A DNA stretch of 64,000 nucleotides. Source: Ceraceosorus guamensis. Its lineage: Eukaryota; Basidiomycota; Exobasidiomycetes; Ceraceosorales; Ceraceosoraceae. The notes under the pieces are model-generated. The model saw nothing but the letters and a program-made list of their open reading frames with translations, did not search any database and was not told where the DNA came from. Position numbers and translations under genes: made by a program. Positions 1,737 to 17,118 of the stretch are shown here, one piece after another; within the stretch, counting starts at the first letter, position 1; each line of letters begins with the position of its first letter. Location of the stretch: NCBI RefSeq assembly GCF_003144195.1, contig NW_020290017.1, positions 1 to 64,000 on the forward strand, given 5' to 3'.

Positions 1737-2420
1737 ATGTCGACAGCAACGCATAGCCCGCTCGTTCACGACGGCTCTGTCAGAGATGAGAGCGACGACA
1801 TGATCGTGGACCCGTCGAGTCAGCCCGCCTGGAGCAGCGAGCAACCATCTGCGCCCAATGTGATCGAGATCCTCAAGGCTTTCTTTGCAGCGCAAGAGCA
1901 GCGCCGATCTCACTGGGCAGAGTTCGATGATGCATTGGCATCCATCAACTCCCCTGCGGATGCGGCGTCAAACAGTGCTCGATCCGGCCAGCATCACTCT
2001 TCCTCTGCCCAGGCCGACGCACACGACTCGCCCGCAACCTCAGCAAGAGGCTGTCAAGCATGCAGTGCCCAGTCTCTTTCATCGCTCCCGCTCACAGAGA
2101 CAGACCTGCCAAGAATCCTATCCCTCGTCACTGCCGGCCTTCTCGACGCCTCTCATCGCGTTCGCACGTGCTCTACGGAATTGCGCGGCAGGCAAGAAGA
2201 GGACCTCGCAACTTCAGTGGATCGCGTTCAGGATCTGGAGAACGATGTGCTAAGGAGCGTCGTGCGAATCGAGACTATCAGAAGGGACGGCCAGAGGGAT
2301 CACCATGACGAAGTGCAACAATGCTCAGACAGGATCCGCTCATGCAGAGAGGAGATTCAGGAGGCATGTGCAGAGATACAGGCCGAGCTGGCCGAGCGGA
2401 CACTCGAGACGGCAGAATAG
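1737..2420 (+). CDS. Hypothetical coiled-coil protein, 227 aa
   Basis: This is an intronless frame of 227 codons that I do not recognise. The N-terminal 40 residues are acidic and Ser/Pro-rich. Residues about 40-60 may form a short helix (VIEILKAFFAAQEQ), and residues 65-115 are Ser/Ala/Gln-rich and probably disordered. From about residue 120 to the end the protein is charged and helical, with regular Leu/Val/Ile spacing (for example ENDVLRSVVRIETIRRDG and QEACAEIQAELAERTLE), consistent with a coiled coil. There is no signal peptide or membrane segment. The ATG at 1737 is the first in-frame one with a plausible context. The gene converges on the P-protein C-terminal gene, whose stop is 300 bp downstream. 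That the frame is real is inferred from its length and heptad-like C-terminus. Confidence 0.5.
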   Translation: MSTATHSPLVHDGSVRDESDDMIVDPSSQPAWSSEQPSAPNVIEILKAFFAAQEQRRSHWAEFDDALASINSPADAASNSARSGQHHSSSAQADAHDSPATSARGCQACSAQSLSSLPLTETDLPRILSLVTAGLLDASHRVRTCSTELRGRQEEDLATSVDRVQDLENDVLRSVVRIETIRRDGQRDHHDEVQQCSDRIRSCREEIQEACAEIQAELAERTLETAE

Positions 2421-2720: not shown

Positions 2721-5284
2721 CTATTTCTTCTTACTTTCCTCAAACGCATAGTCGGCCACATCACCGCATTCACAAATGAGGTTCATATCGCCGTGGCTGC
2801 AGAGGAGTACTCTGTCAGCTGAGATGGCCACTCGTGATGCTTCGATCTTCGACTGCTCATCCTACTCACGCGTCATCAAGGCGGCCAACGGAGGGCCAGA
2901 ACTTTCTCTCGCGAGTTGCTTGCGAAGGGTACACCGCCAGCTGACGAGAATAAGGCCTATCCCACTCTCCATCGCTCAAGCACTCGACTGGATGAGGGGC
3001 ATTCTTAAGAGAGTTGTTGGTCGGATCATCGCCTTGCTTTCCGTCTGCAATGTCTTGGATCTCGCCGCGAATGGAGATCATGGCGTCGCAGAATCTGTCC
3101 AGCTCGGCAAGCGACTCTGACTCTGTTGGCTCGATCTACAAACCGACCAGAGAACGTCAGCCATAGTGTTCTGGCCACAGATAGGCCAGCTGTATGCGTC
3201 TCACCAGAAGACCAGTGCTAATGGGCCACGAGCAAGTTGGAGAATGAAACTAAGGCAGAAGGACGTTGGAAATCAGATTCCGGGCAAACGGTGTGATGCC
3301 GACATCTCGATACTCACGCCGTAATCATGCAGACGTTTGGCAACGTCGCTGACTGTAATCTTGTGCGCTCCAAACTCGGCAAGGTCGAGCAAGAATTCGT
3401 GAGCGCAACGGCCGTTTCCATTGACATATCGAAGCTTGTAGTGTGGTGCGAGGCGCTTTGCCATGTAGTTCGCAGACAGCAAAGAGACCGTGGAGCTCTT
3501 GCGCAAGCCTTGCCAGCCCAACATCTTTATATAAGCCCAAGCAATGGTCAAGATGCTCGCGCTGCCCCATGGCGCAGCAGAGATCGCTTCGATTGCCTTC
3601 TCTCCTCCAGCTCGACTGTCTAGAGGGTGACCGGGGAGGTATGGCGCCAAGTGAGCAGCACAACCAATAGGTCCAACGCCTGGCCCACCGCCACCGTGAG
3701 GAATAGAAAAGGTCTTGTGCAAGTTGAGATGGGTGACGTCAGCACCGATCACACCTGGGCTTGTCAGTCCGACCTGAGCTTGCATGTTTGCGCCGTCCAT
3801 GTAGACCTGACCACCGTTCGCTGGACCGAGGCGGAGATCGTCCCTAGTCAGCTTTGCTACAGTCAGATCATGCGCTCGCATTGACTCACCATGAATGAGC
3901 TCGCACGCCTCCCGCACACCCTCTTCGTACACTCCATGGGTGCTCGGATAAGTTACCATGAATGCAGCTAGAGAATCTTTGTACTTCTCCGCTTTCTCGC
4001 GCAGATCTGCAAGATCGAGGTTGCCGTCCGCCTGGCTCTTGACAGCAACAACTCGCATTCCAGCCATGACAGCACTAGCGGGATTCGTTCCGTGCGCAGA
4101 GGTGGGGACGAGACAGATGTCCCTGTGACCCTGGCCATTGGCGTCGAGATACGCTCTGATGACACTGAGGCCTGCAAACTCCCCTTGAGCGCCCGAATTG
4201 GGTTGCAGCGACACTGCAGGGAAGCCAGTGATCTTGCAAAGGTCGGACTCGAGCTCAGCGATAAGCTCGGCATATCCCTTTGTCTGCTCGGCCGGTGCGA
4301 ATGGGTGTATGCCGTTGTATCGAGGGTCGGAAAGCAGGCTCATACTGGTGGTCGAGTTGAGCTTCATGGTGCAGGAGCCGAGTGGGATCATCCCATGTAC
4401 TAGCGAAAAGTCCTTTGACTGCAGGTGATGGATGTACCTCAGCAGGTCTGTCTCGCTCCGATGGGCATTGAAGACGGGCTGTGTCAGGAAGTCGGACTCT
4501 CGAGCGAAGGGGCCCTGCTGCCCTTGTGCGTTGCCGATCGAAAGCGTCTCGAGCGCGGCGGCATCGAGGCCCGCGCCACTGGCGAGGCGGAGCAAATCCT
4601 CGTGCCTGAGCTCCGGCTTGCCAGCTGCTCGCGCGAACGCATTGATGACGTTCAGCAGCTCCTCGAACGTGACGGTCTCATCAAGGGTCACGCCGACTCT
4701 TGTAACTGAATCAGCTCTGACGTTGAGGCGAGCTGCCGCAGCCTCGCTGTGCACCTTGGCTGCTGGAACGCTGATTGGAAGTTCGATGGTGAGAGTGTCG
4801 AAAAAAGCTTCACCGGCATTGTCAGCCGGCAGACCAAGATCAGAGAGCGCGAGCGCCAAAAGACGGGTCTGCGCACTGAGTGAGGGAGAGAGAAGGGTAG
4901 CAGCATCGGTCAGTCATCCGCTGCGCAAGTCGATTCTCGATGGCGAGCCTGATCTCCCTTTTGCAGGACGCGAGCAGCGGGATCGAATCAATCCACTCAC
5001 TGCACCTTGGCTGCGATCTTTCTGAGCCCTTTGGGGCCGTGGTAGCAAGCATACATGGCGGCCATGTTGGCCAGCAGCGCTTGCGCTGTGCACACATTTG
5101 ACGTGTAGCGGGAGCGCTGCTCGGCCGTCGTGTAGTGTTGTTTTGCCTTGACATCCTGGGAGGCTGCTGCGTTGGCCGAAGTGGTCGCGAATTTGCGAAG
5201 CGACGTTGCAACAGCCTTTGGCGCCGATACGCTGGCTTGCGCCAAACGCTGACTCCGGGGCCCGGCCAGTCGTACGAAGGACAT
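2721..5284 (-). CDS. GCV2: Glycine decarboxylase P-protein, separate C-terminal (PLP-lysine) subunit with its own presequence
   Basis: Six exons: 5284-5001, 4875-3890, 3820-3318, 3249-3205, 3135-2870 and 2796-2721; 719 aa. The P-protein decarboxylates glycine and passes aminomethyl to lipoyl-H-protein in the mitochondrial glycine cleavage system. The first ATG opens an Arg/Ser/Ala-rich, acid-poor leader ([18 protein letters not shown], then [12 protein letters not shown] with an R-x-F cleavage-like site). P-protein homology starts abruptly at about residue 60 with [20 protein letters not shown], exactly where the gene at 6264-7649 stops. It then continues to the usual end, with [37 protein letters not shown], and [17 protein letters not shown] carrying the PLP lysine (Lys459). 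Small exon 4 supplies [15 protein letters not shown], and the tail ends GDMNLICEC. The 69-nt intron 2 has no stop and keeps frame, so unspliced reading adds 23 residues. The missing N-terminal part lies on the opposite strand. Confidence 0.93.
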
Positions 5285-6263
5285 TGCTGCCGAGAGCGCT
5301 CGATAGTGTCGCAAGGCGATTGTCACAGTTGGCTAACGCTGGGGGTGCCGAGCGAAGGCGGAGATGACGAGAGTCACAATCACGCAGCTGAATCCAAAGC
5401 TGCTAACTCGAGGAAGTGCTGGTTCTGTAGGTGATGAGGAGGTGAGCAAGACGGCGAAGGCAGAAGCTCTTTGCCTGACCAATCAAGAGACAGCTAATGA
5501 TTGTGAGCTTGCGAAGAGGAGCTATCGGTACAAGTCGCGGTCGCCCTCATCCATCACGGTTGCTCTACTGTAGCTGTTTCACGCAAGCATGCAGCGGCGG
5601 CAACGTGAACGAATCTTTCGCTCGCGCGTCCCTACTGCATGCATGCTGCTGATGCGCGCACCATCGCAGCCCACACAACCGAAGAACGAGAGCAGCAGGC
5701 CTGCTGTGCACGTAAGGTACGAGTCACATCTTCAGACCACTCAATCCAGCAAAGATCGTATCGGTTCGACAGCGACGATGCGCCAAATTGCTCGGGGACA
5801 TCTCCGCGGTCGCGACGCGTGTAAAGCCGGCTTCTTCCGCGCTGCCACCGTGCGCTCGCTCGCTGAATCGATTCAGATTGCGACCCGTGACCCGGCTCGG
5901 CCTCTTCAGCAATCGTGAATCGTGAATAGACGGGCCTCTTTCATTTTGTGCGGCGCGGTCAAACGCTATAGCAGCGCGCGAAGATTTCTATGCAGCCAGC
6001 AATCCCATTCACCACGATTTGTAATCTAAGTTGCACTCACTGACTCTTGACTCAAACTCTTGACACGGCTCGCGACTTGATCATACATTTTGATCGAGTC
6101 TGGTCCTCGATCCTCCCACCAAGACGACACGTTGCTATCGGAGATCTGTATACCTCCTTGAATAGTCGCGCTATTCAAGACCGACTCAGACTGCTCACAT
6201 CAGCAACATCCTCGACCAGCAAGGCTCCAGGTGAAGCAACCTCGCTCCTTGCGCGAGGTCAAC
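5285..6263. promoter_or_regulatory. Shared 979-bp divergent promoter of the two P-protein halves
   Basis: This interval separates the start codons of the minus-strand C-terminal half (5284) and plus-strand N-terminal half (6264) and must hold both promoters and 5' leaders. It contains no convincing gene. A doubled AATCGTGAATCGTGAATAG motif lies at about 5912-5931. Sharing one interval would help keep the two chains in step, but no specific factor site could be assigned. Confidence 0.6.
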
Positions 6264-7649
6264 ATGAGTCTGCGTCAATCGTTCGTCGCAGCTGTATCTC
6301 TGCGCACCACCGCACCGGCACGGAGGGCTTTCATCAGAACAGCTTCGGCGTTGCCTGCAGCAAGCCCTTCAGCCACTCCCTCATCTACATCTCAGGCTCC
6401 CTCCTCGCGGGCACTGGCATCACAGGCTCAGCCATTGCCGCTTGGTAGTGTCTCCGAGAGCGTCTTCGCTCCACTGGATGACTTTTCTCCTCGGCACATT
6501 GGTCCTCGCGATGAAGACATCCAGAAGATGCTCGCCGAGTTGGGCTACAAGTCATTGGACGATTTCATTGCGGACGCTGTGCCAAAAGAAATCAGGCTCG
6601 ACGCCGACGGATCAAAGACGACGGAGAGCTCGAGCTCAGCAAGCGCTACTCCTATTATCGCTCTGAGTGAGAGCGAGCTGGCAAGAAGAGGTCTGGAGAT
6701 TGCCGAGAAGAATGCCAACTTCAAGAGCCTCATCGGTCTGGGATACCACAACACCAATGTCCCTCCCGTAATCCTGCGCAATGTGAGTAAGCGTCACACG
6801 TGCTGGCACTGGCAGCAGAAAGATGCAGAAGGGGGTCTTGAGGCTCAATGTCCCTGCCCAACTGTCTGCCAACTGTCTAGGTGCTCGAGAATCCCGCCTG
6901 GTACACGAGCTACACGCCGTATCAACCGGAGATCGCTCAAGGTAGGTGCTCAGACATTCCTGCACCTGTTAGCCAGACGCGCAGTTCTGACATACAACTT
7001 CCTCTCCTCAGGTCGACTGGAATCCCTCCTCAATTATCAAACAATGATCAAGTCTTTGACTGGCCTCGACATCTCCAATGCGTCCTTGCTGGACGAGGGA
7101 ACGGCTGCTGCCGAAGCAATGACGCTGTCGTACGGTCACGGCAAGTCCAAGAGGAAGACTTTCCTGGTGGATGAGCGCGTGCTTCCGCAGACAATTTCCG
7201 TCCTTCGCCAGCGCGCAAGAGGCTTCGAGATCAACGTGGAGGTGGTGAATCTGTCACAGGGCTTGCCAGAGTCCCACAAGACATCCAAGGATGTCATGGG
7301 CGTCTTGGTACAGTATCCTGACATCGACGGGCGTCTGAAGGACTGGTCATCCTTGGCAGAAGAGACGCACAAGGCGGGTGGTTTAGTGGTCTGTGCTGCT
7401 GATCTGCTGGCTCTGACGATGGTCAAGCCGCCTGGAGAATGGGGCGCAGATATTGCTGTCGGCTCTTCGGCACGATTCGGAGTGCCCCCGGGCTTTGGCG
7501 GCCCACACGCTGCTTTCTTTGCAGTCCGAGACAAGCTCACGCGCAAGATGCCCGGAAGACTGATCGGAGTCAGCAAAGATGCTCGAGGAAGCAAGGCATA
7601 TCGCCTCGCCCTCCAGACCAGGGAGCAGCACATTCGACGTGCGCAGTAG
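6264..7649 (+). CDS. GCV2: Glycine decarboxylase P-protein, separate N-terminal subunit
   Basis: Three exons: 6264-6782, 6881-6941 and 7012-7649; 405 aa. The ATG at 6264 opens a mitochondrial presequence rich in Arg, Ser and Ala, with an [10 protein letters not shown] stretch matching the usual R-x-F/I-x-x-T/S cleavage pattern. P-protein homology begins at about residue 73 with [19 protein letters not shown]. It proceeds through [62 protein letters not shown], and [14 protein letters not shown] to [11 protein letters not shown]. The reading then ends Ala-Gln-stop. In one-chain P-proteins the next residues would be [20 protein letters not shown], which are absent here but present in the divergent gene at 5284. 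No further P-protein exon is found downstream on this strand. I infer that the two products assemble in mitochondria, like bacterial GcvPA/GcvPB. Confidence 0.93.
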
Positions 7650-10600
7650 GCCCTCTCTCGCGCTTCATCAACACCTCCGTCCGGAAACCTAATTGCTGCC
7701 CAGTCTGTCCTCAACGGGCAAGTGGGTTGGCAATCCCTCCTCTCAGCAGCCATTCTCGCCCGCGTTGTGCCGAGCCACGACCGTCGGCCCCACATGCCTG
7801 CCTCATCGCTACAATACTCTGACTGCTACTTCTCATGCACTCAACTGTCACGCTGGTCACGTTCCCATCAATGTATGCTGTTGTCATTTCTTTCAGACAG
7901 GTGGCTCGGCAGCGCTGTCTCGATCATCCGGCACAAGCTCTGCCTTTGGCAGGCATGCACCACGCTGAGGGTGCTGAAGAAGCCAGATCGCTGACAGCCT
8001 TCGACGCAGGGTCTGCCTGCTCAAGTTCTACCGATAAGGTTGAGGTACAGTAAGACAAGTCACGAGCAACGAGATGCAGACAGCGGTGCAAGCCGCGTAA
8101 ACTTGGAAATTGCCAGAATAGGCAAGCGCGGTGTGCACGAGGAGATGCTGCCCCTTCCTTAGCGCGCCGCCCGACATCGTCTCCATCACGTCACTGTACT
8201 AGTCTAGTAGTAGTAGACTACGACTCTTGACTACTACTACATACTATTGGTCCGGCATTCATAGCTGCATCACTGCACCATCATCACTCACAATTTTACT
8301 TTAAGTTGCGCCGGCAAGGTTGGATGATAAGTACGAATCGGCACCGTCATCGGCGCGGTATGAGGCTCTTTAACTTGCTCGCTGGAAATCCCTCATCGAC
8401 GCGCAAGGGCTCGTCTACAGGGTCATTGAGAGACCTTGGGCGGCCGGGGAAATGAAAACACAATGAGGAAAGCCATCGCTTCCAGTGCTGCTTTCATTTT
8501 GGGGCGGCACGTGTAGGACAAGGGGAGAGTCAGCTGACTTTGTGAGCTCGCGATCCTCCAATCTAGACTACAGCGACTACACGCTTCAGAGCTCATGACG
8601 CTCGCAGTCATATCGGCCTGTCCAGTCTGCGATACTTAGCGCGGTTTCATCGGGGGGAAGCCCGTTGTCTCAGATCGGGCTCTGCGCGCGCTTGACACTA
8701 TATCAATCCGACACTCGGTTGCTTGTGTGGCAGCAGTCTCCAAGGCGAATGGTAGATGTTGAGATGGAGAAGGTGTTCAGAAATCCACCATGCAACTCTA
8801 TCTCTAGCGCACCGAGGCGTGCGCCTATCCTCTGACTGATCATAGCTTTCCGAACTCCACGCAAAATGATGAGAATAACGCTTGAACGGATGGTTGCTTG
8901 TGTATCGGCGGGTCGGATTCTCGCAAGCAGCGCTATAGCGCTCGCACTCGCTTTCGCACGCTGCGAGCGAGGAACCACAAGCAGGCTCAAGACCCTCATC
9001 CGGCTGCGTTCATCTGATCAGCATGCTTTCCACGTGCGTTCCGGAGTTGCTGGGGCAGCAGACGACGTGCCCGTTCCACGTAAAGATGGTTGGCATCGCC
9101 CATAGCATTTTGGTCATGAGGGTATCTGCATGAGGACCAGGATGAAGATGATCAGAGCTAGGACATACGTGTGATGCCTGCTTCTGAAACGCTAAGTTGC
9201 CGATAATTGTCTCGGCAACAACCAGTCCTGAAATAAGGTTGGACGGTGGTTCATCATGGTCTCACCTTCGTCGCGACTAGCGTGAAATTTATGACCTCCG
9301 CGGCCAACACAAGCTGCTGTTGCTCACACGCGCCCTGCTGTCAGTCAGGCGAGGCTGAAGGTGGGCGTGGCGTGCATACCGTGCAGCAGCAGTGTGAGTC
9401 ATGGCGGGCTGTATGCATCACGAGCAGCACAACCAGCACTACTGAGCTCTGACTCACCACTCACTCAAACCCATGACGATGCATGCTGATCGATCGAGGC
9501 CCAATCTTCTCGACTTTTTTTTGGGAGAAGACACAAAGACTCGATGACGGGCCAACGTCGCGTTGCTGCACCATCAGCTGTCCGGGCGCTAAGAAGCTCA
9601 CAAATGACGACTGCGTGTGACTGACAGGCCATCTGACCACCATCAGCATCGCGTCTGCTTTTCAGCGAGCAGAGCAACACCTGCTCCGATCTTGTCTCTG
9701 CTCAGCACGACAACGCACAACAAGACGACCCATCGTAGAGACTTTCACAGCAGCAGAGCACTCATAATCAACCCATATCAAGGAAAAAGGACATCATCCC
9801 ACCCGAGCTCTCCGAGGCTACACAGCCACTGGCCCCTCAGCATCACCCTTGGAGAAGCGAGAGGCACCTTCGACTGCGCTAGTCCGCGACGTACTACCCA
9901 CAGCTCGACTCAATCCCCGCTGGACAGCAGTGCACGAGCCCGTCTCTCTTTGTATCGCTCGCTATAGCGTGGCCAAGTCGCGCCGGTCGGGACGCTGTGG
10001 CGCAGAGACAGCAGCCCACTCTGACTGCGACGGGATCGGCGGGCCTATAGAGCAACCTCAACGCCTGGTTTCTCCGCTGCTCAGTCGAGCGCGCCACCCA
10101 CCTTTTTCTCGTCGAGTCAAGCTGTGGCGAGCCCTGTGCCAGCTGAGAGCGAGCTTCACAGGGGAGCAGAGCCGAAACCGAGTCGATTGATGAGCATCTC
10201 GCCTCCTGTCAAACCTATAGTGATCCCGGTCTCCAGAAGCGACGCGGCTTCACACGAATCAAAGAGCAGTATCCCACGGCGCATCAATGGCTGCTGTGGC
10301 CTAAGCGCAGAGTGACTCGGTGTTCCAGTCCTTGTGTCACGTTCTTAGCGTTAGATTGCTTAGGTGAGTTCAGGTTCAGGTTTAGCGCTAGACAAGACTC
10401 TCTCCGTCCCGACACGGAGAACTGCCCAGCTTGCTGCTTGGAGTGAGGAGCGCAAAAAAGAAGCCGGTGGGAAGGCCCCCCAAGCTTTGAGCCCTTGCTA
10501 GCGTGTGCGTGCCCGCTCAGCATCCATCCATCGTCTTGTGTGGTTGCAACCTTGCTGGCTCAGCGGGGAGATTCTGCTCTGTCGTTGATGCTCCTCAGCG

Positions 10601-15493: not shown

Positions 15494-16345
15494 ATGGTCC
15501 GCATCTCAGTCCTGGTGAGTTCAGCAATCTGCGCCTAAATTCGACGCGAACTTGCGAAACTGACCCTCAACTATCACGTACAGAACGACGCGCTCAACAG
15601 CATTGTCAACGCAGAGCGCAAGGGAAAGCGCCAAGTGCTCCTCAGGCCGTCTTCCAAGGTCACCATCAAGTTCTTGAGCGTCATGCAACAACATGGTGAG
15701 CATACAATGCGGAGCACTCGACTTGGCGACGAGCACGGCTGTTCTCCTCAGCCTCGGGCTTATAACTGTTGGGCGATCGGCCGGGCCGCGATTCACACTC
15801 GCGTCTCGATTCTCCCCACCGGTGCTCATCTTTAAGAGCCCGACAGAGCAAAGCTTGCTCGAGCCCTTTGGGCCGGGCGCTTGCACTAGCGAGCTTCCAT
15901 TCCATCCTCGAGTGGGCAGCTTGCCGGCACTCAGCTACATGCCCAGCCCAGTCGCTCTCGAATCGAAAGCTGACTGAAGATTCTTATTGTTCGTGTTTGC
16001 AGGCTACATCGGCGAGTTCGAGATTGTTGACGACCACAGATCAGGCAAGATTGTCGTGCAGCTCAACGGAAGAATCAACAAGGCTGGTGTCATCTCTCCC
16101 CGATTCAACGTGCCCCTCTCCAGGATTGAGGGCTACGCCTCCAACTTGCTCCCCAGCCGTTCCGTCGGACTTGTCATCCTCACCACTTCGGCTGGTATCA
16201 TGGACCACCACGAGGCCAGGCGCAAGCACGTCGGTGGAAAGATTCTCGGGTATGTAGCATGCGTTTGTCCAGCAGACGTGAAAATGGGTCGTCGGGCTGA
16301 CGATGGACTCGGCTACTCCAACTCTTTTGCAGATACGTCTACTAA
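15494..16345 (+). CDS. RPS22: Small ribosomal subunit protein uS8
   Basis: Four exons: 15494-15514, 15584-15695, 16003-16249 and 16333-16345; 130 aa, exactly the eukaryotic uS8 (S15a) length. uS8 binds 18S rRNA in the 40S platform. The product begins [20 protein letters not shown], continues [52 protein letters not shown], and [16 protein letters not shown], and ends GGKILGYVY. The last exon codes only for the final Gly (partial), Tyr-Val-Tyr and stop. The second intron (307 nt) is long for this genome. Divergent from eS17, giving a co-oriented promoter region for two proteins of the same subunit. Confidence 0.97.
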
Positions 16346-17118
16346 GCGTCTCGATCTGTGCTGCTTATGCAAACCAGATTTTGGCGAGTCAAGCTGTTGT
16401 CCTAGCTCCGCACCGAGAAGTGTCAAGCCTCCCTGTACTACCTTCATGCATTACGCTACCACAAAACTATGCGCACAGCACAATGGCATCAATGGTCACC
16501 CCACTGCGTGTGGGTGGTTCGCGATCTGTGCTACATCTGCTCGTAAACTTCACCGCCAATGCTCGTCGGTAAGCGGTGAAGCCCATCGGTCTTTGTCTTT
16601 GCGGTCGTCATTTGTCAAGCTGCTCCTTCTTGCTTGTCAGGCCGTGAGGTAGATGGGGACTCGAAACCTCACACTGCCACGGTCCATGTACGGTCCCTCG
16701 CCGCGGGTCACATTCGTGATTTGACGGATCGACATGCATCAGCAGGCGCGTGAAATCTCGGAGCATGCATGGTCTGCGCGCATGCGCCCCTTACTCGATC
16801 ACTGTTGTGGCCGACGCGGGCCAAGGAGCCGCGTGCATCAACCACCCACAGTGACATCTCTGTGCACTGTTTCTAACTCACGACACCCCGAGTAACACCT
16901 CTTGACTCCTATCGCCTAGCCTCAATTATTCCGTTCAGACCTCGTCTTCGACTGCTATAGTTCGAGTCATAGCATTGGTTTTGGCATTCACTTCAAATGT
17001 ATGACGAAAGCACGCCGAACGTCATTTAGTCTAACACAGCCTCATTGCGACAGCCCTCTGTTCGTAGTTATCACGCCTCCCTCCACACATCCGGGTGTCC
17101 ACTCTCCGCTGCACCACA
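16346..17118. other. Intergenic between uS8 and the large hydrolase gene
   Basis: It holds the uS8 3' end and the promoter of the gene starting at 17119. No further gene is supported. A box-B-like GGTTTCGAGTCCCC on the minus strand near 16655-16668 was examined and does not fold as a tRNA. Confidence 0.5.

What the first reader, a model, noticed from the sequence alone, without database searches (positions are those of the whole stretch)
2721..7649. Mitochondrial glycine decarboxylase P-protein split into two divergent nuclear genes
Seen: the plus gene encodes P-protein from [14 protein letters not shown] to REQHIRR and then stops. The minus gene resumes at [18 protein letters not shown] and runs through [15 protein letters not shown] to the normal C-terminus. 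Each has its own ATG, presequence-like leader and phase-consistent introns. Lengths (405 + 719 aa) sum to one P-protein plus a second leader. Known: eukaryotic P-proteins are one chain; many bacteria use separate GcvPA and GcvPB subunits. Inference: a eukaryotic gene fission has recreated a two-subunit enzyme that must assemble in mitochondria. I know of no described case in fungi.
Basis: partly seen in the sequence, partly recalled or inferred. Interest (0 to 1): 0.95.

Follow-up and report, generated by a model that had tools for sequence, protein, structure and literature searches.

The report
Mitochondrial glycine decarboxylase split in two
In a small group of smut-related fungi, the gene for a core mitochondrial enzyme that breaks down glycine has broken into two back-to-back genes, each with its own start and what looks like its own mitochondrial address tag, so the enzyme is probably built from two separately made pieces.

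Summary
A plus-strand gene (6264-7649, 3 exons, 405 aa) and a divergent minus-strand gene (5284-2721, 6 exons, 719 aa) together encode one glycine decarboxylase P-protein, cut at HIRR|(EKA)|TSN. The seven introns are GT-AG. Two searches of the assembly found no other P-protein gene; T- and H-protein genes are present. An assembly error is very unlikely: Ceraceosorus bombacis also has two separate P-protein entries, and metagenomic relatives show an N-half ORF stopping at HIRRAS and two C-half first exons reading HYTT[AS]E[QN][12 protein letters not shown], one with a different Arg-rich leader. Split rows form one clade (100/100) inside Ustilaginomycotina. The halves keep 105 of 107 and 216 of 219 near-invariant positions. 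Most likely two chains are imported separately and assemble into an active P-protein; this is inferred, with no RNA or protein data. The bacterial analogy is only partial: the cut maps to residue 313 of 438 of Thermus GcvPA, inside the first PLP-fold unit, not at the GcvPA/GcvPB joint. Ten paper-library searches showed no report of a split eukaryotic P-protein.

The parts
6264..7649 (+). N-half P-protein gene: exons 6264-6782, 6881-6941, 7012-7649; 405 aa; leader about residues 1-65, then [10 protein letters not shown]...[18 protein letters not shown]
   Evidence: spliced translation; PF02347 positions 2-314 of 429
2721..5284 (-). C-half P-protein gene: exons 5284-5001, 4875-3890, 3820-3318, 3249-3205, 3135-2870, 2796-2721; 719 aa; holds the HLNLHKT motif
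   Evidence: spliced translation; PF02347 positions 312-429 plus PF21478; motif
5105..5284 (-). New leader of the C half (60 residues), ending in the junction peptide [11 protein letters not shown] before TSNVCTAQ; same exon as the start of the body
   Evidence: no second match in the genome at E up to 10; junction peptide also in P0241 and P0242; basic, acid-free
5285..6263 (.). 979-bp stretch between the two start codons; presumed shared regulatory region
   Evidence: position only; function inferred
7638..7649 (+). End of the N half, ...R-A-Q-stop, where unsplit proteins read R-E-K-A-T-S-N
   Evidence: alignment; P0011 ends HIRRAS

Best explanation
In an ancestor of the Ceraceosorus lineage the single nuclear gene for the mitochondrial glycine decarboxylase P-protein (GCV2/GLDC) was cut between HIRR and TSN, and the two parts came to lie head to head. 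Each part is now an independent gene with its own start codon and leader. Both products are imported into mitochondria, lose their leaders, and bind each other to rebuild the fold: the N chain is the large domain of the non-catalytic first PLP-fold unit; the C chain supplies that unit's small domain, from the long linking helix on, plus the whole catalytic second unit. Shown: gene structures, no second copy found, presence of the split in relatives, sequence conservation. Inferred: import, leader cleavage, assembly, activity, and origin by one inversion of promoter plus N part.
For: Complete spliced frames for both halves. No other P-protein found in the 23.8-Mb assembly, with T and H genes present. 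C. bombacis has separate N and C entries, each listed with a longest contig of 1,514,893 bases. P0011 N exon ends HIRRAS; C-half first exons P0241 and P0242 read [16 protein letters not shown], and P0241 has its own Arg-rich leader. Split rows one clade, 100/100, in both the N and the C tree. 105 of 107 and 216 of 219 near-invariant columns kept; only A416 lies in neither half. Leaders of the window N, window C and P0241 are basic and acid-free. The break lies before the long helix 422-463 in the AlphaFold2 model of the unsplit Jaminaea protein.
Against: No transcript, protein, localisation or activity data. The deposited C. bombacis N model ends differently (from GRLIG to TGGSAALSR... instead of ...HIRR), a similar sequence exists 3' of the window's N gene, and the C. 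bombacis C entry lacks its first part including any leader; I read these as faulty models but cannot prove it. The metagenome evidence is ORF calls of unnamed organisms; no contig with both halves was seen, an ORF can end by running into an intron, and P0242 has only 7 residues before HYTT. Split copies are further from unsplit relatives (means 72% N, 67% C) than these are from each other (82%, 75%), so some relaxation is possible. 30 of 770 control ATG-started 35-mers pass the leader filter. The inversion origin was not testable: no relatives' DNA was available.
Confidence: 0.85

Rival explanations
1. One P-protein is still made: the two transcripts are joined by trans-splicing (or the halves by protein splicing) into a full-length chain.
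For: The halves are complementary with almost no overlap.
Against: The C half has its own ATG and leader in the same exon as TSNVCTAQ, with no splice site needed between, and a relative shows a different Arg-rich leader at the same place (P0241), which a trans-spliced body would not need. The E-K-A link is absent from both ends. No intein-like extension on either half: the N half matches Pfam up to its penultimate residue.
Confidence: 0.04
2. Only the C half still works (alone or in another role) and the N half, or the whole pair, is decaying.
For: Split copies have diverged more than unsplit ones; stems of 0.47 (N) and 0.39 (C) changes per site.
Against: 105 of 107 and 216 of 219 near-invariant positions kept; frames open and introns intact; N exon still 86% identical to P0011 over 202 columns; partner genes T and H present.
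Confidence: 0.08
3. Assembly artefact: a local inversion error cuts a normal gene.
For: The layout equals a normal gene with one part flipped.
Against: The C half has a leader and the N half a stop where a flipped normal gene would not; C. bombacis entries and metagenome exons show the same break.
Confidence: 0.01
4. The split arose by inverted duplication of the whole gene followed by complementary loss, rather than by one inversion.
For: Also gives a head-to-head pair; T-x-E-Q-x-x-R at both ends could be a doubled segment.
Against: No remnants of the missing halves beyond shuffled controls (28, 5, 8 and 30 of 60 shuffles reach the observed scores); the doubled segment is not significant against shuffles (38%, 15%, 62%) and only marginal against background peptides (5%, 5%, 27%).
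Confidence: 0.3

Closest known systems
Single-chain eukaryotic P-protein (GLDC/GCV2; human 6I33) and its single-chain bacterial kin (4LGL)
   Same: Same sequence nearly end to end when the two halves are added together
   Different: Two genes and presumably two chains here; E-K-A between HIRR and TSN replaced
Bacterial two-subunit P-protein GcvPA/GcvPB (Thermus 1WYT chains A and B)
   Same: P-protein encoded by two genes
   Different: Cut at residue 313 of the 438-residue A chain rather than between A and B; here nuclear genes, head to head, with organelle-type leaders
Split nuclear sdhB (sdhB-n/sdhB-c) of Euglenozoa, which PMC5664110 calls the only gene in pieces of mitochondrial origin residing exclusively in the nucleus (passages read)
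   Same: A mitochondrial enzyme subunit encoded by two complementary nuclear genes
   Different: Other enzyme and lineage; there the split separates two domains, here it cuts one PLP-fold unit before its linking helix
Split cox2 (cox2a/cox2b) of chlorophycean algae and alveolates (PMC5664110, passages)
   Same: Two complementary gene products thought to reassemble in mitochondria
   Different: Fission linked to transfer from mtDNA; here an intron-bearing nuclear gene whose unsplit nuclear form persists in sister lineages

Membership tests
Glycine cleavage system P-protein (PF02347 + PF21478) | GDC-P and GcvP2_C domain matches covering the protein | tested here: met
   N 2-314/429; C 312-429/429 plus GcvP2_C 2-122/122
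Glycine cleavage system P-protein (PF02347 + PF21478) | PLP lysine in the conserved HLNLHKTF motif (role of the lysine recalled) | tested here: met
   HLNLHKT present in the C half
Glycine cleavage system P-protein (PF02347 + PF21478) | Glycine decarboxylating activity with lipoyl-H-protein | not testable with these tools
   no biochemical data
Single-chain eukaryotic P-protein | one gene, one chain of about 1000 residues | tested here: not met
   two genes, no full-length copy found in the genome
Bacterial GcvPA/GcvPB pair | chain break between the two homologous PLP-fold units | tested here: not met
   break at Thermus GcvPA residue 313 of 438
Nuclear gene fission of a mitochondrial enzyme | two complementary genes, no intact copy, derived state on the tree | tested here: met
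   the tree rows other than the split ones were chosen for full length
Nuclear gene fission of a mitochondrial enzyme | each half carries a mitochondrial targeting sequence | tested here: inconclusive
   both leaders basic, acid-free, amphipathic, but 30 of 770 control 35-mers pass too; no dedicated predictor, no localisation
Nuclear gene fission of a mitochondrial enzyme | two separate mRNAs and co-purifying chains | not testable with these tools
   no RNA or protein data

The most novel reading that the evidence does not exclude
A conserved mitochondrial PLP enzyme has been split inside one fold unit by a rearrangement of its nuclear gene, and the C chain has evolved a new conserved N-terminal peptide (HYTT[AS]E[QN]RSR[YF]) that replaces the lost E-K-A connection and helps hold the two chains together: a natural split enzyme kept in the Ceraceosorus lineage, with a shared promoter region balancing dosage.
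Probability: 0.45. Interest if true: 0.75.

Novelty: new variant of a known kind. Interest (0 to 1): 0.7.

Why it matters
Fission of a large, highly conserved, single-copy enzyme gene inside a folded unit should be costly at the moment it happens, and the new half then needs a promoter and a mitochondrial address. A conserved case with unsplit sister lineages lets one date the event, ask how a second presequence arose, and test in yeast how a split enzyme reassembles. It is also a rare derived marker for the Ceraceosorus lineage and a natural split design for GLDC, the enzyme defective in nonketotic hyperglycinaemia (disease link recalled).

Tried and rejected
Full-length P-protein elsewhere in the genome: searched with PF02347 and with the Jaminaea protein P0127; only stretches over these exons found. 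The fourth partner, the L-protein, was not searched for.

Leader borrowed from another gene of the same genome: the 60-residue C leader matches only itself at E up to 10. Source unknown.

Remnants of the lost halves (expected if a full inverted duplicate had decayed): best local scores are within shuffles. Downstream of N 28 of 60 shuffles reach the score, upstream of the C leader 5 of 60, the C leader exon 8 of 60, downstream of C 30 of 60. One match runs on to base 7751 past the N stop; I did not align it residue by residue, but the region 7650-8600 is in this test.

Overlapping ends from a staggered-break inversion: T-x-E-Q-x-x-R occurs at the N-half end (TREQHIR) and in the C junction peptide (TAEQRSR), but shuffles reach the score in 38%, 15% and 62% for the three sequences and background peptides in 5%, 5% and 27%; at DNA level 189 and 54 of 500 shuffles do. 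Not supported.

C half unusually fast relative to N: of 25 unsplit pairs with similar N identity (of 136 pairs), 18 have C identity at or below the split pair's. Ordinary.

Other N fragments ending at HIRR (P0003, P0116) were not counted as splits; they end exactly on the motif and may be truncated calls. Not followed further.

Rows used and dropped: one search used 102 of the 119 proteins P0122-P0240 (length at least 980), so unsplit form was a condition of choice; one search used 29 of these plus 3 split rows per tree; P0121 was cut to its first 610 residues (its end looks non-coding), P0011 lost its first 14 and last 2 residues in the tree, P0001 was cut to 380. A1 used 37 rows. Two searches scored 8000 candidates each and listed 120 each, so further split relatives may have been missed; one search listed all 54 of its hits, of which I read 7.
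Full report
What is there. Two spliced genes lie head to head with 979 bp between their start codons. The plus gene, 6264-7649, has three exons and encodes 405 residues; the minus gene, 5284-2721, has six exons and encodes 719. Every intron begins with GT and ends with AG; the splice sites are my reading, guided by the conserved protein, without RNA. The N protein matches Pfam GDC-P positions 2-314 of 429; the C protein matches 312-429 and then the whole GcvP2_C domain. Added together they are one P-protein: against 102 full-length relatives the N half keeps 105 of 107 columns that are at least 97% conserved and the C half 216 of 219. Twelve unsplit proteins of the smut group, each left out in turn, keep 107 (of 107-109) and 211-219 (of 219-220). 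Only one near-invariant residue, the alanine of R-E-K-A-T-S-N, is in neither half by this count; the neighbouring lysine column is filled by Q in the N half and R in the C half. The PLP lysine motif HLNLHKT is in the C half.

It is the only P-protein found. The assembly of the window (23.8 Mb, 199 contigs) was searched with PF02347 (5 matches) and with the full-length Jaminaea rosea protein P0127 (7 matches). All lie over exons of these two genes. Genes for the partner T- and H-proteins are present on other contigs, so the glycine cleavage system does not look lost.

It is conserved, so it is very unlikely to be an assembly error. The best named hits are two separate Ceraceosorus bombacis proteins, P0001 for the N half and P0124 for the C half, 98% over 370 and 99% over 439 columns in the tree alignments. 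Each is listed with a longest contig of 1,514,893 bases, which fits one shared contig but does not prove it. The deposited models are imperfect: P0001 leaves the conserved sequence after GRLIG and ends in TGGSAALSR..., and P0124 begins only at MKLNSTT. The window has nearly the same TGGSAALSR sequence in an open frame ending at 7968, about 250 bp past the N stop, so an alternative last exon cannot be excluded. More distant relatives come from metagenomes. P0011 carries the last N exon and ends HIRRAS, two residues past HIRR as the window's HIRRAQ does. P0241 begins with a quite different Arg-rich leader and then reads [26 protein letters not shown]0242, with only 7 residues before it, reads [19 protein letters not shown]; the window reads [19 protein letters not shown]. 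So between the window and P0241 the leader has turned over while the junction peptide stayed, and the peptide is recognisable in 3 of 3 C-half first exons seen. The window and these relatives are 86% identical over 202 N columns (P0011) and 81% over 566 C columns (P0121). Whether P0011, P0121, P0241 and P0242 come from one organism is unknown, and P0121 does not reach the break, so it is evidence of kinship only.

When and where. In maximum-likelihood trees of the C part and of the N part (32 rows each) the split rows form one group with 100/100 support. Both trees place it among the smut-group rows; in the C tree it sits with the Jaminaea/Sympodiomycopsis side, nearest to four unsplit proteins (98/89), and in the N tree its neighbour is unresolved. 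Named unsplit rows are Jaminaea, Sympodiomycopsis, Violaceomyces, Tilletia, Malassezia and several Ustilaginales. The comparison rows were chosen for full length, so the trees show that the split is nested among unsplit forms, not that no other split exists. The simplest reading is one fission on the Ceraceosorus stem. The stems are long (0.39 in C and 0.47 in N, changes per site), and the window proteins are less like 17 unsplit ones (72% N, 67% C on average) than those are like each other (82%, 75%), so the protein changed faster around or after the fission. The species of the window is named by no tool; I infer a Ceraceosorus from the identities. Ceraceosorales is an order of Exobasidiomycetes; several species are described (PMC11687029, passages read).

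Where the protein is cut. The N chain ends at the equivalent of Thermus GcvPA residue 313 of 438. The bacterial two-subunit enzyme is cut about 125 residues later, between the two homologous PLP-fold units. In an AlphaFold2 model of the unsplit Jaminaea protein (mean pLDDT 73, pTM 0.73) the break (413-417) lies in a low-confidence stretch, 404-420, just before a long helix, 422-463, most of it confident. In fold-type I PLP enzymes such a helix links the large to the small domain (recalled). So the N chain is the large domain of the non-catalytic unit, and the C chain brings that unit's small domain plus the whole catalytic unit. That is a plausible seam, but not the bacterial one.

How it probably works. 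The leaders of window N, window C and P0241 have 5, 6 and 6 Arg/Lys and no Asp/Glu in the first 35 residues, with amphipathic moments of 0.45-0.47; 30 of 770 ATG-started open 35-mers in the window pass the same filter, so each leader alone is weak evidence and the agreement of three is better. The expected route is separate import and assembly in the matrix. The head-to-head layout suggests a shared regulatory region giving balanced dosage. A single inversion that flipped promoter plus N part would give this layout at once. No remnants of the missing halves were detected beyond the breaks and no duplicate elsewhere, which fits an inversion better than duplication and decay, but relatives' DNA is needed. 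The C leader has no match elsewhere in the genome.

Known or new. Complementary nuclear genes for a mitochondrial enzyme are known: split sdhB of Euglenozoa, and split cox2 and rpl2 in connection with transfer from mtDNA (PMC5664110, passages read). The ten paper searches made showed no report of a split eukaryotic P-protein: Ceraceosorus + genome (20 papers listed), 'glycine decarboxylase' + 'gene fission', 'glycine dehydrogenase' + 'gene fission', 'P-protein' + 'glycine cleavage' + 'split gene', Ceraceosorus + glycine, 'gene fission' + fungi + mitochondrial + presequence, 'gene fissions' + 'fungal tree' (21 papers, 8 listed), P-protein structure terms, a five-term search on P-protein, two genes, fungi and split, GcvPA + GcvPB + eukaryote. 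Apart from passages of PMC5664110 and PMC11687029 I saw only the listings. The library lacks most subscription journals. I rate it a new variant of a known kind.

Noticed in passing
window 1737-2420 (+): Open frame with a Pfam DNA repair REX1-B match (36.4 bits, cut-off 24), next to the 3' end of the C-half gene; the predicted 3' neighbour in unsplit relatives if one inversion made the split.
   Followed up: partly
window 7897-7968 (+): The deposited C. bombacis N-half model (P0001) ends in a sequence nearly identical to this frame (TGGSAALSR...) instead of ...HIRR; kept in both genomes, so an alternative C-terminus is possible.
   Followed up: partly
window 15978-16652 (+): ORF with a ribosomal protein S8 match (44.8 bits).
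   Followed up: no
database hit P0122: A P-protein filed under the fern Adiantum nelumboides groups with smut-group proteins in both trees, so it is probably from a fungal contaminant of the plant assembly.
   Followed up: partly
database hit P0003: A fungal-looking 387-aa N part with a leader that ends exactly at REQHIRR on a 1.7-kb contig; truncated call or an independent split, not resolved.
   Followed up: no
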